Below are positions 19,466 to 49,246 of a stretch of DNA of 64,000 nt, piece after piece. Position 1 is the first letter of the stretch. Every line of letters begins with the position of its first letter. Source of the stretch: Actinomycetota bacterium (GTDB taxonomy: Bacteria > Actinomycetota > Thermoleophilia > Solirubrobacterales > 70-9); NCBI GenBank assembly GCA_018268575.1, contig JAFDWF010000066.1, positions 1 to 64,000 of the forward strand. Reading direction: 5' to 3'. Position numbers and translations under genes: made by a program. Below the pieces are notes generated by a model, which had not been told where the DNA came from, made no database searches, and saw only the letters and a list, made by a program, of their open reading frames with translations.

Positions 19466-20440
19466 CTACAACTCGCGTAGGGCCGGGAGCAACTCGTGCT
19501 CGGCCCAGGGGATGAAGTTCTTCTGGTGCTCGCCTCCGATCTGGACGAGACCGATCTCGGTGAAACCGGCGTCGACGAAGCGCTTGATCTTGGCGACGTG
19601 CTCCTCGACGTCCGGACCGCAGGGGATCGAGTCGGTGACGTCCTCGTCACCGACGAACTGCGAGGCGGCGTCGAAGGAGTCGGGATTCGGCAGGTCGGCC
19701 ATCACCTTCCAGCCGAGCCCGAACCAACGGAACTGTTCGTGGGCGCGCCCGACGGCGGCATCGCGATCCTCGTCGTAAGAAACGGCGATCTGGCCGACGC
19801 GACCCTTGCCGATGCCGCCCGCCGCATCGAACATCTCCCCGAGTTCTGCCTCGGGTTGGACAGCGACCATGAAGTCGGCCTTGCGGCCCGCGAGCCTGCA
19901 GGACTCCTCGCCGGAGACGGCGACGCCGATCTCGACCCGGCTCTCGGGCCGGTCCCAGAGGCGTGCGGTCTCGAGGTCGAAGTAGTCGCCATGCCAGCTC
20001 ACGGCCTCGCCCTCGGGAGCGTCGAAGAGGGCGTCGATCACGTCGATCGCCTCCGAGAGCATCGAGTGGCGCGCGCCTACGGCGGGCCAGCCTTCGCCGA
20101 CCACATGCTCGTTCAGGTTCTCCCCCGCCCCTAGCCCGAGGCGGAAGCGCCCGCCGGAGAGGATCCCGACCGTCGCCGCCTTCTGGGCGACGACCGCGGG
20201 GTGGTAGCGGATCGTCGGGCAGGTCACGTAGGTCATCAGACCGATCCGCTCGGTCACCGCGGCGGCGGCGCCGAGGACCGACCAGGCGTACGGCGAATGG
20301 CCCTGCTCGGCGAGCCAGGGCTGGAAGTGGTCCGAGATCTGTGAGAAGTCGAAGCCCGCCGCCTCGGCCCGCCGGATGTCGTGGACCAGCGCGTCGGGCG
20401 CGGACTGCTCGCACATCATCGTGTAGCCGAATTCAGTCAT
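19466..20440 (-). CDS. F420-dependent LLM-class oxidoreductase (G6PDH-like family)
   Basis: This 324-residue TIM-barrel protein of the luciferase-like monooxygenase superfamily has AAGFDFSQISDHFQPWLAEQ, IGLMTYVTCPTIRYHPAVVA, GGRFRLGLGAGENLNEHVVG and FTEIGLVQIGG. These fit the subgroup related to F420-dependent glucose-6-phosphate dehydrogenase (TIGR03557-like). It should transfer hydride between a sugar or alcohol substrate and F420; the true substrate is unknown. The ATG at 20440 overlaps the HAD gene by 8 nt and lies 8 nt after a GGGTAC element, so it may be read both from the upstream operon and from its own promoter. Confidence 0.85.
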   Translation of the reverse strand: MTEFGYTMMCEQSAPDALVHDIRRAEAAGFDFSQISDHFQPWLAEQGHSPYAWSVLGAAAAVTERIGLMTYVTCPTIRYHPAVVAQKAATVGILSGGRFRLGLGAGENLNEHVVGEGWPAVGARHSMLSEAIDVIDALFDAPEGEAVSWHGDYFDLETARLWDRPESRVEIGVAVSGEESCRLAGRKADFMVAVQPEAELGEMFDAAGGIGKGRVGQIAVSYDEDRDAAVGRAHEQFRWFGLGWKVMADLPNPDSFDAASQFVGDEDVTDSIPCGPDVEEHVAKIKRFVDAGFTEIGLVQIGGEHQKNFIPWAEHELLPALREL

Positions 20441-21113
20441 GTGCAGGGGTACCCGCGAGGTCGAGCGCCCACCTGATGCCGCGCTCGCGGATACTCGCCA
20501 CCGAGTGCTCGACCTCGGCCGCGCCCGCCTCGCGCAGCTCCGCCTCCGAGAAGCCGCCGGTGAGGAGGGCCAGGGTCGGCACACCGGCCGCCTCCGCCGC
20601 CTTCACGTCCCAGGTGGAGTCTCCGACCATCAGCGCCGGGCCGCCCGAGCCGTACTTGTCCAGAGCGGTCTGGACCAGTTCCGGATGCGGCTTGGTGCGC
20701 TCGGCGTCGGCGGCGGTCGTCGCGCCGGCGATCCGCTCTCCCGCGCCGAGCAGCTCGACGTAGCGGTTGACCTCGTCGCCAGCCGCCGAGGAGGCCAGGA
20801 TCACCGTCACTCCCGCCTCGTCGAGCTCGGCGATCAGCTCGCTCGCGCACTCCATCGCCTCGACTTCGCCGATCAGCTTGCCGTAGGCCTCCGCCTGCGC
20901 GTCGCGGAGCTCGTCGCCGTCGGCGTCCTCGGCCTCCTCGCCGAGCAGCGAACCGACCAGCTGGTCGCCGCCCATGCCGATGTGGCGATGGATCTCCCAG
21001 ATCGCCACCCGGTAGCCGTGCTCGCGGAAGGCCCGGTGCCAGGCGATCGCGTGCTGGTAGTTGGTGTCGACGAGGGTGCCGTCGACGTCGAGGACGACGG
21101 TCGGCGCGCTCAC
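20433..21113 (-). CDS. HAD-superfamily sugar-phosphatase-like hydrolase
   Basis: This protein has 226 residues with HAD motif I DVDGTLVDTN (residues 9-18), motif II in VILASSAAGDEV, the motif III Lys in ERTKPHPEL and motif IV MVGDSTWDVKAA. The helical cap after motif I (HRAFREHGYRVAIWEIHRHI) places it with beta-phosphoglucomutase/phosphoglycolate-phosphatase-like enzymes. It overlaps the sugar porter gene by 4 nt upstream and the LLM gene by 8 nt downstream, suggesting handling of an imported sugar or a phosphate ester. Substrate not deducible. Confidence 0.88.
   Translation of the reverse strand: MSAPTVVLDVDGTLVDTNYQHAIAWHRAFREHGYRVAIWEIHRHIGMGGDQLVGSLLGEEAEDADGDELRDAQAEAYGKLIGEVEAMECASELIAELDEAGVTVILASSAAGDEVNRYVELLGAGERIAGATTAADAERTKPHPELVQTALDKYGSGGPALMVGDSTWDVKAAEAAGVPTLALLTGGFSEAELREAGAAEVEHSVASIRERGIRWALDLAGTPAHD
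20449..20473 (-). promoter_or_regulatory. Candidate SigB-type promoter inside the HAD gene end
   Basis: GGGTAC (20454-20449, minus strand) is followed by CCCTGCAC and the LLM start 8 nt later. The tetramer 15 nt upstream is GGTG, a weak -35. The same GGGTACCCCTGCAC string recurs before the sugar porter gene. Confidence 0.45.
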
Positions 21114-22480
21114 GTCGTCCCCACCGCCTCGTCGGTGACCTCCTCGGATATCTCCTCCAGCGAGCGGTTCTTCGTCTCGGGCAATTTCAGAACGAAGAAG
21201 ATGACCGCGGCGACCCCGAAGCCGGCGTACAGCCAGAAGGTGCCCTCGACGGAGATCGCGCCGGTGAGCGTGAGGAAGAAGGTGGAGACGAGGAAGTTGG
21301 TCGCCCAGTTCGCCACCGTCGACAGCGACATCGCCGCGCTCCTCACATGCAGCGGGAAGATCTCGGAGATCATCAGCCAGAAGACCGGCCCGAGGCCGAC
21401 CGCGAAGGCGGCGATGTAGACGATCAGGCAGACCAGGGCGAGGCCGGAGAAGTCCTGCTTCAGCGTCGAGGAGGCGAAGAAGATCCCCAGCACGACGAGG
21501 GCGATGACGCAGCCGATCGTGCCGACGATCAGGAGCGGGCGTCGGCCGACCTTGTCGAGGATCAGGATCGCGACGACGGTGAAGATCACGTTGGTGATCC
21601 CGACCGAGAGCGCCTGGGTGATCGCGCTGGTGGTGCTGAGGCCGGTCAGCTTGAGGATCGTCGGCGCGTAGTAGATGACGGTGTTGACGCCGATCAGTTG
21701 CTGCGCGATCGCCATCACCAGGCCGATCACGACCATCGCCCGCACGCCGGGTGCGAAGAGATCGCGCCAGGTGCTGTCGATCTGCGCCTCTTCGTCGATC
21801 TCACTCAGCTCCTCCTCTACTTCGTCCTCGTCGCGGACCATGCCGAGCACCTCGCGCGCCTCCTCCTCGCGCCCCTTCGACGCCAGCCAGCGCGGCGAGA
21901 AGGGCTGGAAGTACATGCCGATCGCCAGGGCGGCGCCGGGGATCGCCGCCAGCCCAAGCATCCAGCGCCAGTTGCCGGCAGCGCCGCCGAAGGCCCAGTT
22001 GACGATGTAGGAGGCGAAGATGCCCGAGACGATCATCAGCTGGTTGAACGAGGTGACGCCGCCGCGGATCCGTTTCGGCGCCAGCTCGGAGATGTACATC
22101 GGCGCGACGAACGACGCGGCGCCGACGGCGAACCCGAGGACGAAGCGCGCCCAGATCAGCTCCCACGGCGACTGGGAGGCGGCCGAGGCGAGCGCGCCGA
22201 CGACGTAGATCGCACCCGCGATGATCATCGTGCGTCGGCGCGACAGCGCATCCGCCGACCAGCCCGACATCGCCGCGCCGATCACCGCCCCGACCAGGAG
22301 CGCCCCGACGAAGGCCTGCGCCTCGAATCCCGACGGATGGAGGTCGGGTTCGATGTAGAGGAGGGCGCCGGAGATGACGCCGGTGTCGTATCCGAACAGG
22401 AGGCCGCCGAGCGCGGCGATCAATGCCAGCCGCAGGATGAAGCGGTTCGAGCCTTTGAACACCTCGCGCAGGAAGTCCAT
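21110..22480 (-). CDS. MFS sugar porter (sugar/proton symporter)
   Basis: This 456-residue transporter has 12 predicted helices and complete sugar-porter signatures. These are ALGGLLFGYDTGVISGALLY near the N-terminus, SRRRTMIIAG, RFVLGFAVGAASFVAPMYIS (R-x-x-x-G-x-x-x-G with PxYxSE-like end), the central Q-L-x-G-x-N (QQLIGVNTVIYYAPTI) and the second-half RRPLL. The C-terminal PETKNRSLEEI motif is the classic one. It should import a hexose or pentose with H+. The start at 22480 (MDFLREVFKG) is supported by homologous starts and by a GGGTAC element 12 nt upstream. It is the first gene of a porter-HAD-LLM run. Confidence 0.92.
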   Translation of the reverse strand: MDFLREVFKGSNRFILRLALIAALGGLLFGYDTGVISGALLYIEPDLHPSGFEAQAFVGALLVGAVIGAAMSGWSADALSRRRTMIIAGAIYVVGALASAASQSPWELIWARFVLGFAVGAASFVAPMYISELAPKRIRGGVTSFNQLMIVSGIFASYIVNWAFGGAAGNWRWMLGLAAIPGAALAIGMYFQPFSPRWLASKGREEEAREVLGMVRDEDEVEEELSEIDEEAQIDSTWRDLFAPGVRAMVVIGLVMAIAQQLIGVNTVIYYAPTILKLTGLSTTSAITQALSVGITNVIFTVVAILILDKVGRRPLLIVGTIGCVIALVVLGIFFASSTLKQDFSGLALVCLIVYIAAFAVGLGPVFWLMISEIFPLHVRSAAMSLSTVANWATNFLVSTFFLTLTGAISVEGTFWLYAGFGVAAVIFFVLKLPETKNRSLEEISEEVTDEAVGTT

Positions 22481-22492
22481 CGCGGTGCAGGG

Positions 22493-22517
22493 GTACCCCG
22501 ACGCGGGCCCACCTATC
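22493..22517 (-). promoter_or_regulatory. SigB/SigF-type promoter for the sugar porter
   Basis: On the minus strand GATA (22517-22514), 15 nt, GGGTAC (22498-22493), then CCCTGCACCGCG and the ATG at 22480. Confidence 0.55.
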
Positions 22518-23133
22518 GATCTGCGACCCCGACGGCGACCATCCGCAGATCCTCGACCAGCGCCGCCATCGCTCCCTCCCGCTCGTTGTGGTCGTGGAGG
22601 CGCAGCACCGCCGAGGGATGCAGCGTCAGGGCGGCGAGCGGTGCCAGCGGCGATTCGAGCAGCCTGCCTCGGTCCTGCCCCACCCGAACCCCGGGTCCGA
22701 AGAGCGCCCGCCCGGCGGTGGCGCCGAGGGCGACAAGCCCGACCGGCTTGATCGCCTCGAGCTCGGCCTCCAGCCACGGCCTGCAGGCCTCGATTTCTCC
22801 GGCGCGCGGCGTCTGATGGAGGCGGCGCCTGCCCCGGGCACGCCATTTGAAGTGCTTCACCGCGTTGGTCAGGTAGACCTCGCCGCGGGAGATCCCCGCC
22901 GCACGGAGCGCGTCGTCGAGCACCCGGCCGGCGGGACCGACGAACGGCTCACCCTCGAGGTCCTCCTCGTCGCCCGGCTGCTCGCCGACCAGCATCAGCC
23001 TCGCCTTGCGCGGCCCCTCACCGAAGACGGTCTGCGTCGCGTCCTCCCAGAGCGGGCAGCCGCGGCAGTCGCGAGCGGCCTGGCGCAAGGTCCGCAGCGA
23101 CCGGGTGTCGGGAACGAAGTCCGCAGAGGTCAT
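22513..23133 (-). CDS. udgX: UdgX-type uracil-DNA glycosylase
   Basis: This 206-residue family 4-like uracil-DNA glycosylase has N-terminal cysteines (DCRGCPL) for a 4Fe-4S cluster, motif A GEQPGDEEDLEGEPFVGPAG and VYLTNAVKHFKW. It also has the inserted loop RRRLHQTP, which corresponds to the KRRIH loop whose His makes UdgX bind covalently to uracil-containing DNA after excision. The C-terminal motif is TLHPSAVLR. It is the last gene of the seven-gene operon and overlaps the DUF72 gene by 4 nt; a DNA-repair gene there is unexpected, but fits a stress regulon. Confidence 0.9.
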   Translation of the reverse strand: MTSADFVPDTRSLRTLRQAARDCRGCPLWEDATQTVFGEGPRKARLMLVGEQPGDEEDLEGEPFVGPAGRVLDDALRAAGISRGEVYLTNAVKHFKWRARGRRRLHQTPRAGEIEACRPWLEAELEAIKPVGLVALGATAGRALFGPGVRVGQDRGRLLESPLAPLAALTLHPSAVLRLHDHNEREGAMAALVEDLRMVAVGVADR

Positions 23134-23861
23134 GCCGACAGCCCGTCGCGCAGGTACCGGGCGTTCGCCGGTGCGAACCCATTCCAGTCGTTGTTCAGGT
23201 AGACGAAGACCGGGCGGCGGGAACGCCAGGCGACGAGGCGGCGGCGCCAGTCGTCGAGCTCGGCCTCCGAGTAGTTGCCGTCACGGCCGCGGTGTCCGTA
23301 GTGGAGGCGCAGGTAGGCGAGCGGGCCGACCGGGGTCGCCTCGGGGAGAGGCCGGCGCTTGTCGTCGCCGATCGCCAGCGAGGCGCCGTGCTCGGCGAGC
23401 AGCTCGCGGACCGGCCTCGCGAACCAACTCGGGTGGCGGAACTCGAAGCAGTGCCGGGCGCGCGGCAGCCGATCCAGCGCGGCGGCGAGGCGGTCGTCGT
23501 CGCGCTCGAAGTTCTCCGGCAGCTGCCAGAGCACCGGGCCGAGGCGGCGGGACCGGCGCAACGGCTCGAGCGGCTCCCAGAACCGGACCACTGCATCGGC
23601 GATGTCATGAAATCGCTTCATATGGGTCAGGTAGCGACTCACCTTGACCGCAAAGCGGAAGTCGCCCGGGACTTGTTCGGTCCAGTCGCGCACCGTGGAC
23701 TCCTTCGGAAGTCGGTAGAACGTCGCGTTCACCTCGACCGTGTCGAAGACCTCGGCGTAGCGCTCCAGCCGCCGCCGCGCCGGCAGTCCCTCCGGGTAGA
23801 GGCCGCCGCGCCATTCGTCGTAGCTCCAGCCGGAACAGCCGATCCGCACCCGCTCCGTCAT
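23130..23861 (-). CDS. DUF72 (YecE-like) TIM-barrel protein
   Basis: This 243-residue protein has the DUF72 hallmarks: IGCSGWSYDEWRGGLYPEGL at the N-terminus, YAEVFDTVEVNATFYRLP, FRFAVKVSRYLTHMKR, the FEFRHPSW motif, YLRLHYGHRG and a C-terminal VFVYLNNDWNGFAP. The fold resembles a UV-endonuclease/TIM barrel, but the biochemical activity is not established. Both ends overlap neighbours by 4 nt (GT2-GpgS upstream, UdgX downstream). DUF72 and UdgX adjacency hints at a shared DNA- or RNA-repair role; that is inference. Confidence 0.9.
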   Translation of the reverse strand: MTERVRIGCSGWSYDEWRGGLYPEGLPARRRLERYAEVFDTVEVNATFYRLPKESTVRDWTEQVPGDFRFAVKVSRYLTHMKRFHDIADAVVRFWEPLEPLRRSRRLGPVLWQLPENFERDDDRLAAALDRLPRARHCFEFRHPSWFARPVRELLAEHGASLAIGDDKRRPLPEATPVGPLAYLRLHYGHRGRDGNYSEAELDDWRRRLVAWRSRRPVFVYLNNDWNGFAPANARYLRDGLSA

Positions 23862-25531
23862 CTCTGCGAACGCACTTCGGCGTTCAACGGCGGGCGCTCT
23901 TCGCAGCGAAGGCGCCAGAGCTCGGTCGTGCCTCCTTCAGGGCGCGGCCGGAAGGCCGGGTAGGCGGGCCGTGGAGGAGCCCCGGTCCGCCGCTCGACCG
24001 CGACCTGCACCTCCCCCGCCATCGCGCTCAGCGCCCGCAGGCTCTGGTGGCGGTTCTGGCGGACGCCGAGATCGACCTCGGCCAGCCCGTCGAAGCCGGC
24101 GAGGCCGAAGGCATCGATCAGCATCGCGATCTCGACCCCATAGCCGACCGGGACTGATAGCCGCTCGAAGAGGTCGCGGCGGACCGCGATCTCCCCCGCC
24201 AGCGGCTGGGCGAAGCCGGCCAGCGAGGGGAAGTGGAGGTTCAGGAGCGGCCGGGCGACCAGCTCGGTCACCCTCCCCCCTTCGCCATCGTGGATCGCCT
24301 CGCCGAGCATGAAGGGGCGGCGGAACGTGCCCTTGACCAAGGCGAGAGTCGGGTCGACGAGGGCCGGGCCAAGCAGGCCGGTGAGGAAGCCCGGGTAGAA
24401 GCCGGTGGTGTCGGCGTCGAGGAAGACGATCAGCTCGGAAGCGGTCGCCCCGACCGCCCGCCACATCGCGTCGCCCTTGCCGCGGGCGGGCCCGAGGTCG
24501 GGCCGCAGCGCTGACTCTGAGAGCACGGTGGCCCCGTGCTCGCGGGCGATGGCGGCGGTGCCGTCGGCCGAGTCGGCGTCCACAACCACCAACTCATCGA
24601 GGAGCCCGGCGGCGCGCAGCGGGGCGATCGCGCCGAGGATCGGGGCGATCGTGGCCGCGCATTCGCGGGTCGGCAGAATCGCCGCGACTGAGGTCGCCTT
24701 CGCCGCCAGCAGCCGCTCGACGGTGAAGTCAGCACCGTCGTACCGGCGCTCCGCCAGCCAGCGGGCCAGCTCGAGGTCACGCGCGAGGCCGCGCTCGGCG
24801 CGCCCCTCGGTGCGGGCGGCGGTGACGACGGAGACCGGGCGCAGGCGGTGAATCGCGATCCCGGCGGCAGCGAGCCGGTCCTCCAGCTCCTGGTCCTCGA
24901 GCGCCGCCATCCAGGCCATCCCGCCGGCCCGGCGGTAGGCGCGCGGGGTGACCCCGAGGCTGGCACCGGAGAAGTGGGCGTGCTCGGCCGGACCCCTCGA
25001 GGCCGCCTCCCGGGTGCGTGATTCGAGATCAGCCTCGCGGCGAGCGAGGACCCCATCGGGGAGCGCCGCCGCCTCGGTCGGGTCGAGGTGGACCTCGCCG
25101 CCGATCGCCTCGGCTCCCGCCGCGATCGCCTCCAACTGGCGGGCGATCCAGTCGCGGGCGACGACCGAGTCGGCGTCGGTACTGGCGAGGAGGCCGTCGC
25201 AGCGGCCGAGGTTTTCGAGGCGGGCACAGCCGATGTCCATCCCGGTCGCGCGAGCGGGCCCGGCGCCCTGCGCGGGCCCGGGGACGAAGTGGATCGCCGG
25301 GCCGCGGGCGCGCTCGCGGAAGGCCTCGACCACGCCGGCGGTGTCGTCCTCGCAGGCGTCGAGTACGACGATGATCTCGTATTCCTCTAACCCGACCTCG
25401 ACCTGGTCCGCCAGCGCCTCCAGGCAGGCGCCGATCCGCAGCTCCTCGTCGCGGGCGGGGACCACGACCACCGCGCGCACGGTGTCGGCCGGCGCCGGCA
25501 GCGCCGTCGTGGCGGCGGCGCTCAGCGCCAC
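23858..25531 (-). CDS. Two-domain glycosyltransferase: GT2 fused to glucosyl-3-phosphoglycerate synthase-like domain
   Basis: This protein has 557 residues. Domain 1 (about 15-260) is a GT2 transferase: VRAVVVVPARDEELRIGACL, EIIVVLDACEDDTAG, a DxD-like STDADS motif and GGMAWMAALEDQELEDRLAA. Domain 2 (about 280-530) resembles GpgS: VAAILPTRECAATIAPIL, LVVDADSADGTAAIA, PARGKGDAMWRAV, FLDADT, FPSLAGFAQPLAGEIAVRRD and PVGYGVEIAMLIDAFG. GpgS makes glucosyl-3-phosphoglycerate from NDP-glucose for glucosylglycerate or methylglucose lipopolysaccharide synthesis. The GTG at 25531 overlaps the flavoprotein gene by 10 nt. The fusion implies two sequential sugar transfers or donor coupling. Confidence 0.82.
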   Translation of the reverse strand: MALSAAATTALPAPADTVRAVVVVPARDEELRIGACLEALADQVEVGLEEYEIIVVLDACEDDTAGVVEAFRERARGPAIHFVPGPAQGAGPARATGMDIGCARLENLGRCDGLLASTDADSVVARDWIARQLEAIAAGAEAIGGEVHLDPTEAAALPDGVLARREADLESRTREAASRGPAEHAHFSGASLGVTPRAYRRAGGMAWMAALEDQELEDRLAAAGIAIHRLRPVSVVTAARTEGRAERGLARDLELARWLAERRYDGADFTVERLLAAKATSVAAILPTRECAATIAPILGAIAPLRAAGLLDELVVVDADSADGTAAIAREHGATVLSESALRPDLGPARGKGDAMWRAVGATASELIVFLDADTTGFYPGFLTGLLGPALVDPTLALVKGTFRRPFMLGEAIHDGEGGRVTELVARPLLNLHFPSLAGFAQPLAGEIAVRRDLFERLSVPVGYGVEIAMLIDAFGLAGFDGLAEVDLGVRQNRHQSLRALSAMAGEVQVAVERRTGAPPRPAYPAFRPRPEGGTTELWRLRCEERPPLNAEVRSQR

Positions 25532-26697
25532 GCCGCCCGTTCCTCGATGAGCCCGCGGCCGCGTTGGTAGGCGGCGTCGTCGAGGTGCGAGGCGACCCCG
25601 ACCAGCTCGCCGTCGCGCCCGTACCAACAGGCGAAGGCTCCATCGTCGCCGGGCTCGAAGCGCAGCTCGTCCCAACCGTCGCCCCAGCCGACGTATTTGA
25701 TCGTCCGCTCGCCGATCGTCGACCAGAAGCCCGGGGCGACGTCCCAGCGGGATGCGGCGCCGGCCAGCGCCTTGCCCGCGACCTCGCCCATATTCAGCGC
25801 CTCACCCCAATGTTCGACCCGCAGCCGCCGTCCGGCGCTCGCGTTGAAGGCGAAGGCGACGTCGCCGGCGGCGAGCACGCGGGGGTCGGCGGTGGCCATC
25901 GCGGCGTTCACCTCGATCCCGTCCTCGGCGGTCAGCCCGGCGGCCGCAGCGAGCCCGTCGTTGCGCTCCACCCCGAGCGCCAGCAGGATCCGGTCGAAGA
26001 CCTCCCGGTGGCCGTCGTCGAAGCGGGCGCGGGCGGCGCGATCTCCGGCCGGGTCGATCTGGGCCAGTTCGGCTTCGGGCAGGATCTCGACCCCGAGGAC
26101 GCCGAGCCACTCCGCGAACCGTTCCGCCACCTCGCGGCCGAGGCGGTCGATCTGAGGCAGCTCCTCCAGCATCGCCATCGTCACGGCGACGCCGCGCAGC
26201 GCCAGCGAGGCAGCCGCCTCGCAACCGATGAAGCCGGAGCCCGCGACCAGCACCCGGTCGGAGGAACCGAGCTCGCGCAGGCGCTCCGAGTCGCCGATCC
26301 GGCGCACGGTCTGGACCGCGGCGCGGTCCGCGCCGGGGATCGGCGGGACCAGCGGGTCGGCGCCCGTGGCCAGCACGAGGCGGTCGAAGCCGACCTCCTC
26401 GCCGTCGGCCAGGCGCGCCGCCGGAACGCCCAGGTCGAGCTCCGCCACCTCGGCCCCGTTGCGGAGCTCGATCGCGCATTCCTTGTACCAGGAGGCGTCG
26501 GCGAGCGGCAGGTCCTTGCGGCCCGCGTCGCCGCGGAGGAAGTCCTTGGTCAGCGGCGGGCGTTCGTAGGGCGGGTCGGGCTCGCGGGCGAGGATCGTCA
26601 CCGTGCCCGCACCACCCGCCTCGCGGTAGGCGCCCGCCGCGGCCTGTGCCGCTGGGCCGCCGCCGACGATCACGATCCGCTCCCCGGCGCCGCTCAT
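25522..26697 (-). CDS. NAD(P)H-dependent flavoprotein reductase (ferredoxin/rubredoxin reductase-like)
   Basis: This 391-residue FAD protein has GxGxxG motif 1 at VIVGGGPAAQAAAGAYREAG (about 9-28), the RPPLTK segment typical of ferredoxin reductases, ATG in LVLATGADPLVPP, and the NAD-binding VLVAGSGFIGCEAAASLALR. The second FAD motif is VLAAGDVAFAFN. The C-terminal VEHWGEALNMG is the BphA4-like dimer/reductase domain. It would deliver electrons to an oxygenase or dehydrogenase, plausibly the acyl-CoA dehydrogenase-like protein of this operon. The ATG at 26697 overlaps the methyltransferase stop. Confidence 0.87.
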   Translation of the reverse strand: MSGAGERIVIVGGGPAAQAAAGAYREAGGAGTVTILAREPDPPYERPPLTKDFLRGDAGRKDLPLADASWYKECAIELRNGAEVAELDLGVPAARLADGEEVGFDRLVLATGADPLVPPIPGADRAAVQTVRRIGDSERLRELGSSDRVLVAGSGFIGCEAAASLALRGVAVTMAMLEELPQIDRLGREVAERFAEWLGVLGVEILPEAELAQIDPAGDRAARARFDDGHREVFDRILLALGVERNDGLAAAAGLTAEDGIEVNAAMATADPRVLAAGDVAFAFNASAGRRLRVEHWGEALNMGEVAGKALAGAASRWDVAPGFWSTIGERTIKYVGWGDGWDELRFEPGDDGAFACWYGRDGELVGVASHLDDAAYQRGRGLIEERAAWR

Positions 26698-27281
26698 CGC
26701 CGCGCCACCCACCGGTCGAGCAGGTAGTCGGGCGTCGTGCGGCTGGCGTCGAGCAACAACCTCGTTGTGTCGTCGACGAGCGCGTGGACGTCGTCCCCGT
26801 TCAGCTCGCGGCGCGGGTCGCCATGCCGCCAACTGACGACCAGAAGGGCTCCACCCGGAGCGAGCACCGCCTCCATCCGCCGGACGCCCTCGCGGACCAG
26901 GTCCGCGCTCCAGTAGTAGAGGATCTCGCCGCAGACGATCGTGTCGAAAGGGCCCTCCGGCATCTCCTCTGGCAGGCGGCGCCGCTCGAACACGACCTGC
27001 GGGGTGCCGCGTAACCGCTCGCGCGCCCGCGCCAGGGCGGTCGGGCTGAAGTCGACGGCGAGCAGCGTGTGGCAGCGGGCCGCCAGCATCTTGGTGAAGA
27101 CACCGATCGAGCAGCCGAGCTCGAGGGTGCGGCCGGGATGCGCGGGCAGGTAATCGAGCGTGTGCCGGTACTTCGCCTGCTCGTACTCACTGGTCGCGTA
27201 GCTCCAGGGGTCGTCGGATTCGCGGGCGAGCCGCTCAAAGTGCTCGACCGGGGCGCGGTCGTCGTCGAGACGAGGGCTCAT
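26694..27281 (-). CDS. NodS-like SAM-dependent methyltransferase
   Basis: This 195-residue class I methyltransferase has motif I TLELGCSIGVFTKMLAARCH (SAM-binding loop), the acidic end of strand 2 in LAVDFSPTALARAR, motif IV FDTIVCGEILYYW and post-motif LAPGGALLVVSW. The N-terminal FERLARESDDPWSYATSEYE and LYYW are characteristic of the NodS family, which N-methylates de-N-acetylated chitooligosaccharides. Its operon contains a NodB-like deacetylase and glycosyltransferases, so methylation of an amino sugar is a fair hypothesis. Starts and stops overlap neighbours by 4 nt. Confidence 0.85.
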   Translation of the reverse strand: MSPRLDDDRAPVEHFERLARESDDPWSYATSEYEQAKYRHTLDYLPAHPGRTLELGCSIGVFTKMLAARCHTLLAVDFSPTALARARERLRGTPQVVFERRRLPEEMPEGPFDTIVCGEILYYWSADLVREGVRRMEAVLAPGGALLVVSWRHGDPRRELNGDDVHALVDDTTRLLLDASRTTPDYLLDRWVARR

Positions 27282-28384
27282 CGCCGGCTCAGCCCCTCGG
27301 CGCCGAGCTTGGTCAGCAGCGGGTCGAGGCGGTGCTGGAGGAGGAACGTCTCGAGGTCGCGACGAGCGCGGTCGAGCCGGCCCCGGGTGACGAAGGGATG
27401 CGAGCCGCAGGCAGCCGCAGCGACCTCGAGCACCCCTTTGGCGGACCGATCGATCTCCGCCCGCATTGCGATGCTGGTCGCGCGCACCTCGGTATCCGGG
27501 GCTGCCGCGGCACGGTCGAGCCACGCATCGACGGTGCCTCGCATCGCCTCGATCCGGCCAGCCGCGAGCCGGGCAAGCGGCTCGTCGGCGCGGTGAGCGG
27601 CAAGCTCGTCGAGCGCGGCGGCGGCGGCGGCGTCCACCATCCCCGCCCAGCTCGCCGCGGTGCGCATGGCGTCGCGCGAGAACCAGGGGTCCCGGGCGAG
27701 CTCCCCCGGGCCGCCGAGCACGGCTGTGACGGACGCGTCGTGGAAGACGACGCGGTGGCTCTCCGACGCGCGCAGTCCGGCCGCCCGGTACCAGGAGCGA
27801 TCGACCTCGACCTCCTCGCCGCAGTCGAGCAGAACCAGAGCCGGCGGCGTGCCGTCGTCGGTGCCGACCATCACCAGCGCCGCCTCGACCCCGCCGGCGC
27901 CCGAGCAGAAGGTCTTCGCGCCCCGTAGGACGAGGCCGTCGCCGGTTTCCCCGAGGCGAGCCGGGTCGCCCTCCCCCGGTGCGGGGTCGGCGCCCCAGAC
28001 TCCGAATAGCCTCTCGCCCGTGCCGATCGCCGCCAGCTCGCGCTCGCGCACCTCCGGCCCGGCGGCGACTCCAAGGCGCTCGACCGCGTTCAGGTGACCG
28101 TCGAGGATGCGGCCGACCGAGGCGTCCGCGGCGGCCACCCGGCGCACCAGATCCCACTCGAGGCGGACCGCGGAGCGTTCGCGGGCGGCGCCGATCGTCG
28201 CCGTCAGGGCACCGGCTTCGGCGAGATGGAAAAAGGCCTTGCGGGGGAAGCGCGGCGCCCGGTCGAGCTCCGACGCCTCGGCCGCGATCGCCGCCAAAGC
28301 CCGGTCGAGGCGCGCGGCCTGGCCGACGCCGCCGTCCCCATCTGTATCTGTAGCCGTCGCCGACGGTAGGTCCAGCCCGGTCAC
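27278..28384 (-). CDS. Acyl-CoA dehydrogenase-family protein
   Basis: This 368-residue protein has the ACAD layout. The helical N-terminal domain includes FHLAEAGALTATIG and WDLVRRVAAADASVGRIL. The middle beta domain has LRGAKTFCSGAGGVEAALVM, VVFHDASVTAVLGGPGEL and a Ser/Thr FAD-contact region. The C-terminal helical bundle has IEAMRGTVDAWLDRAA and VLEVAAAACGSHPFVTRGRL DRARRDLETFLLQHRLDPLL. I cannot identify a catalytic Glu with certainty, so it may be an oxygenase-like or non-CoA member. The GTG at 28384 overlaps the deacetylase stop (GTGA). Homologues occur in actinobacterial sugar-lipid clusters with GT2 and NodS-like genes, which is the context here too. Confidence 0.78.
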   Translation of the reverse strand: MTGLDLPSATATDTDGDGGVGQAARLDRALAAIAAEASELDRAPRFPRKAFFHLAEAGALTATIGAARERSAVRLEWDLVRRVAAADASVGRILDGHLNAVERLGVAAGPEVRERELAAIGTGERLFGVWGADPAPGEGDPARLGETGDGLVLRGAKTFCSGAGGVEAALVMVGTDDGTPPALVLLDCGEEVEVDRSWYRAAGLRASESHRVVFHDASVTAVLGGPGELARDPWFSRDAMRTAASWAGMVDAAAAAALDELAAHRADEPLARLAAGRIEAMRGTVDAWLDRAAAAPDTEVRATSIAMRAEIDRSAKGVLEVAAAACGSHPFVTRGRLDRARRDLETFLLQHRLDPLLTKLGAEGLSRR

Positions 28385-28983
28385 GCCAGCACCCCCTCGC
28401 AGCCGGACACCCCCGCAGGAGTCAGCGCCGAGCCCTCGGCGATCCCCAGCAACAGCTCGGTGAGGGCGACGGTCTCGGCGCAGCCGCCACGACGGGCACC
28501 TGGCCCGAGGGCGTCGTGCATGAGGATCACGTCTCCCCCGCGCAGGCCACCCTGGGCGTCGAGGGCTTTGAGCATCCGGCGCGCACCGTCGCCCCGCCAG
28601 TCGTGGGTATCGAGATTCCATCCCCAGAGGCGCAGATCGTGGCTGGAGGCGAGGGCGCGGGTGGCGTCGGTCTCGACCCCCCAGGGGGCCCTCCAGGCGC
28701 GCGGCCGCACCCCGACCTCGTCGAGCAGCTCGAGGCCCGTCTCGAGATCGGCGACAACGGCCTCGCGGGGACGCTCGGAATGGCGGACGTGGTCGACGCA
28801 ATGGAATCCGACCTCGCTGCCGGCCGCGAGGATCGACTCGATCAGGTCTGGGTTCTCGATCGCGCGCCGCGCCTGCACGAAGAAGGTGGCGCGGGCGCCG
28901 CGGCGGGCGAGGGCCGCGAGGATCCTCGGCGTCCACAGCGGATCAGGTCCGTCGTCGTAGGTGAGGGCGATCGTCTCCTTCAT
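28381..28983 (-). CDS. NodB-type polysaccharide deacetylase
   Basis: This protein has 200 residues. The metal-dependent deacetylase motifs are all present: motif 1 TYDDGP (residues 9-14), motif 2 FHCVDHVRHSE with two His ligands, motif 3 RAPWG, motif 4 DTHDWRGDG and motif 5 ILMHDA. There is no signal peptide, so it probably acts on a cytoplasmic or lipid-linked precursor. The ATG at 28983 lies 9 nt after GGGTAC; the upstream-extended frame to 29055 runs through the promoter and is rejected. It is the first gene of the seven-gene operon ending at 22513. Confidence 0.88.
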   Translation of the reverse strand: MKETIALTYDDGPDPLWTPRILAALARRGARATFFVQARRAIENPDLIESILAAGSEVGFHCVDHVRHSERPREAVVADLETGLELLDEVGVRPRAWRAPWGVETDATRALASSHDLRLWGWNLDTHDWRGDGARRMLKALDAQGGLRGGDVILMHDALGPGARRGGCAETVALTELLLGIAEGSALTPAGVSGCEGVLA

Positions 28984-28992
28984 GGCCAGGAG

Positions 28993-29016
28993 GTACCCGC
29001 CCTCGCCTGGAGATCC
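28993..29016 (-). promoter_or_regulatory. SigB/SigF-type promoter of the NodB/NodS/GpgS operon
   Basis: GGAT (29016-29013), 14 nt, GGGTAC (28998-28993) on the minus strand, and the ATG 9 nt downstream. It would drive seven genes to 22513. Confidence 0.65.
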
Positions 29017-49231: not shown

Positions 49232-49246
49232 GCCCCGGGGGTACCC
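49220..49246. promoter_or_regulatory. Bidirectional SigB-type promoter on a shared palindromic -10
   Basis: Plus strand: GTCT (49220-49223), exactly 15 nt, GGGTAC (49239-49244), ATG 49252. Minus strand: the same palindrome gives GGGTAC at 49246-49241 with the GTG at 49231, 9 nt on; its -35 is weak (GCTT at 17 nt). Confidence 0.65.

What the first reader, a model, noticed from the sequence alone, without database searches (positions are those of the whole stretch)
22513..29016. Seven-gene overlapping operon joining NodB-, NodS- and GpgS-like enzymes with DNA-repair genes
From a single GGGTAC promoter: NodB-type deacetylase, acyl-CoA dehydrogenase-like protein, NodS-like methyltransferase, ferredoxin-reductase-like flavoprotein, GT2-GpgS fusion, DUF72 and UdgX, nearly all with 4-nt overlaps. 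Deacetylation, N-methylation, two glycosyl transfers and an acyl-chain or amine oxidation suggest synthesis of a modified amino-sugar or glycolipid. This is analogous in logic to Nod factor chemistry but without nodA or nodC. The coupling to a uracil-DNA-processing enzyme is unexplained. This is my best candidate for an undescribed pathway.
Basis: partly seen in the sequence, partly recalled or inferred. Interest (0 to 1): 0.68.

Follow-up and report, generated by a model that had tools for sequence, protein, structure and literature searches.

The report
Widespread uncharacterised amino-sugar glycoside gene cassette
The operon is one lineage's version of a four-gene enzyme set found in at least six bacterial phyla and apparently never studied, which probably builds a small soluble sugar compound whose amino group is freed, methylated and possibly oxidised; the two DNA-repair genes at its end are recent, local neighbours and not part of the pathway.

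Summary
In detail: seven genes on the - strand (22513-28983), overlapping by 4 nt at five junctions and 10 nt at one. (1) A core of deacetylase, "acyl-CoA dehydrogenase"-like protein (ACAD), NodS-like methyltransferase (MT) and GT2 glycosyltransferase is conserved as a cassette. About 47 Thermoleophilia/Rubrobacteria loci have the NodB-type deacetylase; about 45 loci in Actinomycetes, Alphaproteobacteria, Bacteroidota, Cyanobacteria, Verrucomicrobiota and Deinococcus have a PIG-L de-N-acetylase instead. On the ACAD tree the NodB form is one clade, so NodB most likely replaced PIG-L once. Deacetylase and MT are fused in two Bacteroidota lineages. (2) The ACAD is misnamed: it lacks the catalytic Glu, and its nearest solved relatives are flavin monooxygenases (DszC, MsuC, sugar nitrososynthases). 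(3) GpgS (GT81) is fused or adjacent in about half of NodB-type loci, decayed or absent in Rubrobacter, and absent beside PIG-L cassettes. (4) DUF72-UdgX follow the cassette only in the window and two close relatives; UdgX orthologues elsewhere stand apart. No protein of the operon has a membrane segment. Most likely product: a soluble amino-sugar glycoside, de-N-acetylated, N-methylated and perhaps N-oxygenated; the chemistry is inferred. I found no description in the open papers searched.

The parts
28993..28998 (-). GGGTAC motif 9 nt upstream of the NodB start codon (candidate -10 element, SigB/SigF-like by recalled consensus)
   Evidence: at about the same spacing before NodB in L054, L056, L068 and, as GGGTAT, L086; not shown to be a promoter
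28381..28983 (-). NodB-type (CE4) de-N-acetylase, 200 aa, no membrane segment; motifs TYDDGP, HCVDH, RAPWG, DTHDW, LMHD
   Evidence: takes the place of PIG-L in other phyla
27278..28384 (-). ACAD-fold flavin monooxygenase-like protein, 368 aa (annotated acyl-CoA dehydrogenase in relatives); catalytic Glu of ACADs absent
26694..27281 (-). NodS-like SAM methyltransferase, 195 aa
   Evidence: fused to PIG-L in L093, L102, L109, L110
25522..26697 (-). Ferredoxin/putidaredoxin-reductase-like FAD protein, 391 aa; possible electron supplier of the monooxygenase; in 34 of 47 NodB-type loci, in no PIG-L-type locus
24662..25531 (-). GT2 (GT-A fold) glycosyltransferase domain, N-terminal half of the fusion, no membrane segment; core member of the cassette
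23858..24772 (-). GpgS/MpgS (GT81) domain, C-terminal half of the fusion; nearest solved structure is Rubrobacter xylanophilus mannosyl-3-phosphoglycerate synthase; the only GpgS found in the genome
23130..23861 (-). DUF72 protein; recent local addition, not part of the conserved cassette
22513..23133 (-). UdgX-family uracil-DNA cross-linking protein (RRRLH where M. smegmatis UdgX has KRRIH); recent local addition

Best explanation
The first five genes are the Thermoleophilia/Rubrobacteria version of a widespread cassette for a small, soluble amino-sugar glycoside. Proposed order: (1) the GT2 enzyme transfers an N-acetyl-hexosamine, probably from a UDP-sugar, to a soluble acceptor; in this lineage the fused GpgS/MpgS domain makes a glucosyl- or mannosyl-3-phosphoglycerate that could be that acceptor, or extends the product. 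(2) The NodB-type deacetylase (PIG-L elsewhere) frees the amine. (3) The NodS-like enzyme methylates it. (4) The ACAD-fold protein, working as a flavin monooxygenase rather than an acyl-CoA dehydrogenase, oxygenates the product, most likely at nitrogen, with electrons perhaps from the neighbouring FAD reductase. DUF72 and UdgX are later additions. Shown: gene anatomy, cassette conservation, a single NodB clade on the ACAD tree, deacetylase-MT fusion, loss of the ACAD Glu, nearest structural kin, no membrane segments in the window's proteins. Inferred: substrates, step order, N- rather than O-methylation, N-oxygenation, a stress role.
For: Cassette in about 47 NodB-type and 45 PIG-L-type loci, MT and GT2 present almost wherever the contig reaches. 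NodB-type ACADs form one clade (SH-aLRT 100) beside actinobacterial PIG-L types, fitting one swap of two unrelated de-N-acetylases and hence an N-acetyl substrate. PIG-L-MT fusions in Sphingobacteriaceae and Pricia. ACAD profile: DszC 4e-30, MsuC 8e-28, KijD3/ORF36/DnmZ sugar N-oxygenases 1e-17 to 1e-20; fold search led by DszC, TdsC, MsuC, DnmZ. The EGT motif with the catalytic Glu appears in 0 of 110 cassette-like ACAD ORFs but in most acyl-CoA dehydrogenases of the same class. NodB motifs in 52 of 53, PIG-L HPDD in 40 of 45. NodS is the nearest named solved kin of the MT. No membrane segments in the window's seven proteins. GpgS over cut-off. Group D monooxygenases share the ACAD fold and include N-hydroxylases (PMC6165268); flavin N-hydroxylases accept amino sugars (PMC7347517).
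Against: No substrate or product is known. NodB and NodS models score far below their equivalog cut-offs. The GT2 fold matches transferases of many donors (fucose, GlcNAc, GalNAc, GlcA, mannose), so HexNAc is a guess from the deacetylase. Real ACADs follow closely in the fold search. GpgS is absent beside PIG-L cassettes and decayed or lost in Rubrobacter, so it is not part of the core. FDR is absent from PIG-L types. No recurrent flanking gene points to a physiology. GpgS co-occurs with the cassette in Actinomycetota (27 of 32 against 120 of 264, p = 2e-5), but Rubrobacteraceae dominate the count and kinship is not controlled.
Confidence: 0.5

Rival explanations
1. Glycolipid/Nod-factor-like lipid pathway, as first read: the ACAD-like enzyme desaturates or oxidises an acyl chain carried on an amino-sugar.
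For: Annotation as acyl-CoA dehydrogenase in relatives; Nod-like deacetylase and methyltransferase.
Against: The catalytic Glu motif of ACADs is missing in all cassette ACADs examined; nearest solved kin are monooxygenases; no acyltransferase or acyl carrier recurs; no membrane segments.
Confidence: 0.08
2. Branch of polymethylated polysaccharide (MGLP-like) or glucosylglycerate compatible-solute synthesis: GpgS is the key enzyme and the other genes decorate glucosylglycerate.
For: Full GpgS fused or adjacent in 25 of 47 NodB-type loci; it is the only GpgS of this genome; a HAD phosphatase gene lies near in some loci.
Against: GpgS is absent from every PIG-L-type locus and decayed in Rubrobacter while the core stays intact, so GpgS is an add-on. 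MGLP methylation is O-methylation of glucose, which needs no deacetylase (general knowledge).
Confidence: 0.15
3. Modification of a cell-surface polysaccharide or peptidoglycan by deacetylation and methylation.
For: NodB/CE4 deacetylases commonly act on peptidoglycan and chitin, and solved kin are such enzymes.
Against: No signal peptide or membrane segment in the NodB, GT2 or MT; SAM and reduced flavin are cytosolic; elsewhere NodB is replaced by PIG-L, a family known from small glycosides such as mycothiol and bacillithiol precursors (general knowledge).
Confidence: 0.08
4. Functional link to DNA repair: the metabolite pathway and UdgX/DUF72 form one DNA-damage response unit.
For: 4-nt overlaps in the window; the same arrangement in L055 and the same-genus G303; DUF72, Ku and LigD near PIG-L cassettes in Bradyrhizobium, Novosphingobium and Paraburkholderia plasmids.
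Against: Two of about 47 NodB-type loci plus one same-genus genome; the closest relative L054 (81% ACAD identity) lacks both genes; 13 UdgX orthologues in relatives have no DUF72 beside them.
Confidence: 0.05

Closest known systems
Nod-factor tailoring enzymes NodB + NodS
   Same: De-N-acetylation followed by SAM-dependent methylation of an amino-sugar is the same proposed logic; the MT keeps NodS motifs (DPW, YE.., E-G-C.. A..D) and NodS is its nearest named solved relative.
   Different: Scores far below the NodB and NodS equivalog cut-offs; no nodA or nodC in the cassette; extra monooxygenase-like, GT2 and GpgS enzymes; PIG-L replaces NodB in most phyla.
Group D (ACAD-fold) flavin monooxygenases: DszC/TdsC, MsuC, nitrososynthases KijD3, ORF36, DnmZ
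   Same: Best sequence and fold matches of the ACAD-like protein; conserved GH and FCSGA positions as in DszC; catalytic Glu of ACADs absent.
   Different: About 20% identity; forms a clade of its own with DGHxN/EGHxN and LxQ[HP] signatures; activity and partner reductase unknown.
Mycothiol (MshA/MshB) and bacillithiol (BshA/BshB) early steps
   Same: Glycosyltransferase plus de-N-acetylase making a small soluble glucosaminide; PIG-L family enzyme in the sister cassettes.
   Different: GT-A (GT2) instead of a GT-B transferase; methyltransferase and monooxygenase-like protein added; no cysteine ligase seen.
GpgS/MpgS (GT81) glucosyl-/mannosyl-3-phosphoglycerate synthases
   Same: C-terminal domain passes the curated GpgS cut-off; nearest solved structure R. 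xylanophilus MpgS (3f1y).
   Different: Fused behind a GT2 domain within a five-gene operon; PLAGE instead of the PLSGE motif tied to glucose specificity in M. tuberculosis GpgS, so the donor is uncertain.
UdgX (Mycobacterium smegmatis)
   Same: Passes the UdgX model; RRRLH at the KRRIH position with the cross-linking His kept.
   Different: Only the genomic place is unusual.

Membership tests
Nod-factor biosynthesis (NodABC + NodS) | NodB and NodS equivalog scores | tested here: not met
   98.2 vs cut-off 240 (TIGR04243); 79.9 vs 300 (NF041650)
Nod-factor biosynthesis (NodABC + NodS) | NodA acyltransferase and NodC chitin synthase in the cluster | tested here: not met
   None in the operon or recurrent in relatives; the rest of the genome was not searched for them
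Acyl-CoA dehydrogenase | Catalytic Glu near the C terminus ([YG]EGT motif) | tested here: not met
   RDLxxFLLQHRLxP or RDLxxYLRQPxxD instead; EGT motif in 0 of 110 cassette-like ORFs, present in most ACADs of the same class aligned here
Group D flavin monooxygenase | ACAD fold and closest sequence kinship to known members | tested here: met
Group D flavin monooxygenase | Partner flavin reductase | tested here: inconclusive
   FDR in 34 of 47 NodB-type loci, none in PIG-L-type loci; it is ferredoxin-reductase-like, not HpaC-like
Group D flavin monooxygenase | O2- and reduced-flavin-dependent oxygenation | not testable with these tools
   needs enzyme assay
CE4/NodB-type deacetylase | DDG, HxxxH, RxPW, DxxDW motifs | tested here: met
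   window and 52 of 53 ORFs in all
NodS-like SAM methyltransferase | NodS Pfam domain and NodS motifs | tested here: met
   PF05401 68.6 bits vs 24; profile hit to NodS 3ofj 2e-29
GpgS/MpgS (GT81) | Curated model score and metal-binding DxD | tested here: met
   333 vs 262 bits; FLDADT and RQNRHQ kept as in 3f1y
GpgS/MpgS (GT81) | Donor and 3-phosphoglycerate acceptor use | not testable with these tools
   PLAGE where M. tuberculosis GpgS has PLSGE
UdgX | UdgX model and KRRIH-type loop with His | tested here: met
   TIGR03914 269.6 vs 189.95; RRRLH
MGLP pathway | GpgP, OctT and the other MGLP genes | not tested
   only GpgS was searched

The most novel reading that the evidence does not exclude
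The cassette makes a previously unknown, phylum-spanning class of bacterial metabolite: an N-methyl, N-oxygenated (hydroxylamine or nitrone) amino-sugar glycoside, perhaps a radical-scavenging stress protectant. The evidence does not exclude this; the occasional nearness of catalase and Ku/LigD genes and a SigB/SigF-like GGGTAC motif would fit it.
Probability: 0.22. Interest if true: 0.82.

Novelty: new variant of a known kind. Interest (0 to 1): 0.56.

Why it matters
A four-enzyme set kept together in at least six phyla, with two unrelated de-N-acetylases filling one slot and a fusion of two steps, is strong genomic evidence for a real metabolite that seems to have no name. The ACAD-like protein is annotated as an acyl-CoA dehydrogenase in many of the public records read here, so correcting it to a monooxygenase-like enzyme would change how these operons are read. 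The set occurs in easily grown bacteria (Spirosoma, Sulfitobacter, Novosphingobium, Rubrobacter), which makes the question testable by deletion and metabolomics.

Tried and rejected
Unity of all seven genes: rejected, DUF72-UdgX follow the cassette only in the window, L055 and G303. Acyl-CoA dehydrogenase function: rejected on the missing Glu. GpgS as an obligatory member: rejected. GpgS co-occurrence across Actinomycetota: significant but confounded by kinship. Shared flanking genes: 100 neighbour proteins from 30 loci gave no recurrent partner; no family hit more than 4 of 100. GT2 donor by structure: inconclusive. Literature: ten full-text searches of open papers found no description of this gene set. 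My first NodB motif patterns were too strict and were relaxed.

Full report
Observation. The seven genes are real and placed as described. Starts chosen from overlaps and homology give NodB 28381-28983, ACAD-like 27278-28384, MT 26694-27281, FDR 25522-26697, GT2-GpgS 23858-25531, DUF72 23130-23861 and UdgX 22513-23133, all on the - strand. Five junctions overlap by 4 nt; FDR/GT2 by 10 nt. Pfam and NCBIfam support every family label.

Conservation. A search of 299 genomes of the class with the ACAD-like protein found a dozen true orthologues; in those with enough sequence NodB, ACAD, MT and GT2 sit together in the same order, mostly with a GpgS half on GT2 and often with FDR. Named genome contigs widened this to Solirubrobacterales, Conexibacter, Patulibacter and Rubrobacteraceae. 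In plasmids of Alphaproteobacteria, Kitasatospora and Deinococcus, and in Spirosoma, Dyadobacter, Mucilaginibacter, Pedobacter, Nodosilinea and a verrucomicrobial MAG, the same ACAD-like and NodS-like genes flank a PIG-L deacetylase, with a GT2 close by. Unnamed Actinomycetota genomes show the same. Tally with obvious duplicates removed (a few may remain): 47 NodB-type loci, MT missing only in two truncated contigs and GT2 only in four truncated contigs; 45 PIG-L-type loci, 44 with MT and 41 with a GT2 nearby.

One clade. On a tree of 79 ACAD proteins, all 37 NodB-type rows form one group (SH-aLRT 100) whose nearest kin are two actinobacterial PIG-L types. NodB most likely replaced PIG-L once. 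Two unrelated enzymes sharing one slot argue that the slot is de-N-acetylation. In Sphingobacteriaceae (L093, L110) and Pricia (L102, L109) PIG-L and the NodS-like domain are one protein, which argues that they act in succession.

The ACAD-like protein. A profile of 57 sequences matches DszC (4e-30), methanesulfinate monooxygenase (8e-28) and the sugar nitrososynthases KijD3, ORF36 and DnmZ before most acyl-CoA dehydrogenases. The model is confident (pLDDT 93) and its fold search is led by DszC, TdsC, MsuC and DnmZ. Most acyl-CoA dehydrogenases of the same class aligned here carry [YG]EGT at the catalytic Glu; the cassette proteins have LLQHRLxP or LRQPxxD there, and none of 110 cassette-like ORFs has the EGT motif. 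Reviews place ACAD-fold monooxygenases in group D, with N-hydroxylation among their reactions (PMC6165268; PMC7347517). Oxygenation at nitrogen is an inference from the preceding deacetylase and methyltransferase.

GT2 and GpgS. The GT2 domain is a GT-A fold without a membrane anchor; its matches span many donors. The GpgS half is a good GT81 domain close to R. xylanophilus MpgS and the only one in the genome. A full GpgS is fused in 23 NodB-type loci and adjacent in 2; it is decayed in 5 and missing in 17, most of these Rubrobacteraceae and four of them truncated contigs. In L058, L079 and L084 the DxD and RQNRHQ motifs are gone. Most cassette-bearing Rubrobacteraceae examined have a stand-alone GpgS/MpgS elsewhere, so supply of the sugar-phosphoglycerate may have moved out of the operon, or GpgS may be unrelated to the core.

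DNA-repair genes. DUF72 and UdgX follow the cassette only in the window, L055 and the same-genus genome G303. The closest relative L054 lacks them, and 13 UdgX orthologues in relatives have no DUF72 within 1.5 kb. DUF72, Ku or LigD do lie near some PIG-L-type cassettes or cassette-like GT2 genes on plasmids, which may reflect shared stress regions.

Regulation. GGGTAC is 3.7-fold enriched in the window (37 against 10) and lies 7-12 nt before several start codons. It, or GGGTAT, sits at about the same place before NodB in L054, L056, L068 and L086. It resembles the -10 element of SigB/SigF-type sigma factors (own knowledge); no -35 element was established.

Cellular place. None of the seven proteins has a membrane-like segment while the neighbouring transporter does. 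Together with SAM and flavin chemistry this points to a cytosolic small molecule. Conclusion: a real, widespread and apparently undescribed pathway whose conserved core is four genes, not seven.

Noticed in passing
window, 37 sites e.g. 28993-28998, 22493-22498, 20449-20454, 49239-49244: GGGTAC, often as GGGTACCC, is strongly enriched (37 vs 10 expected) and lies 7-12 nt before several start codons: a candidate leaderless or SigB/SigF-like promoter element of this genome.
   Followed up: partly
19466-22480, - strand: Sugar-porter MFS (21110-22480), HAD phosphatase (20433-21113) and an LLM-type oxidoreductase (from 19466) follow UdgX closely, two of them overlapping, each of MFS and LLM with its own GGGTAC; HAD homologues also lie near the cassette in L031, L037, L046, L055, L074 and L082.
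   Followed up: partly
L058, L079, L084, L208, L209: Fused GpgS domains in Rubrobacteraceae-type loci are degenerate; in the three aligned (L058, L079, L084) the DxD and RQNRHQ motifs are lost, and other Rubrobacter GT2 proteins lack the domain altogether.
   Followed up: partly
L055:9003-9965: The NodB gene of Solirubrobacterales 70-9 lacks the later catalytic motifs in the matched frame; possible frameshift or decay.
   Followed up: no
L047:6681-9020 and L138:6531-9044: In Deinococcus the cassette ACAD carries an N-terminal region of about 400 aa without any Pfam match.
   Followed up: partly
L077:10883-12628: In Solirubrobacter a gene on the opposite strand that looks like a secreted peptidase has been inserted between ACAD and MT.
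   Followed up: no
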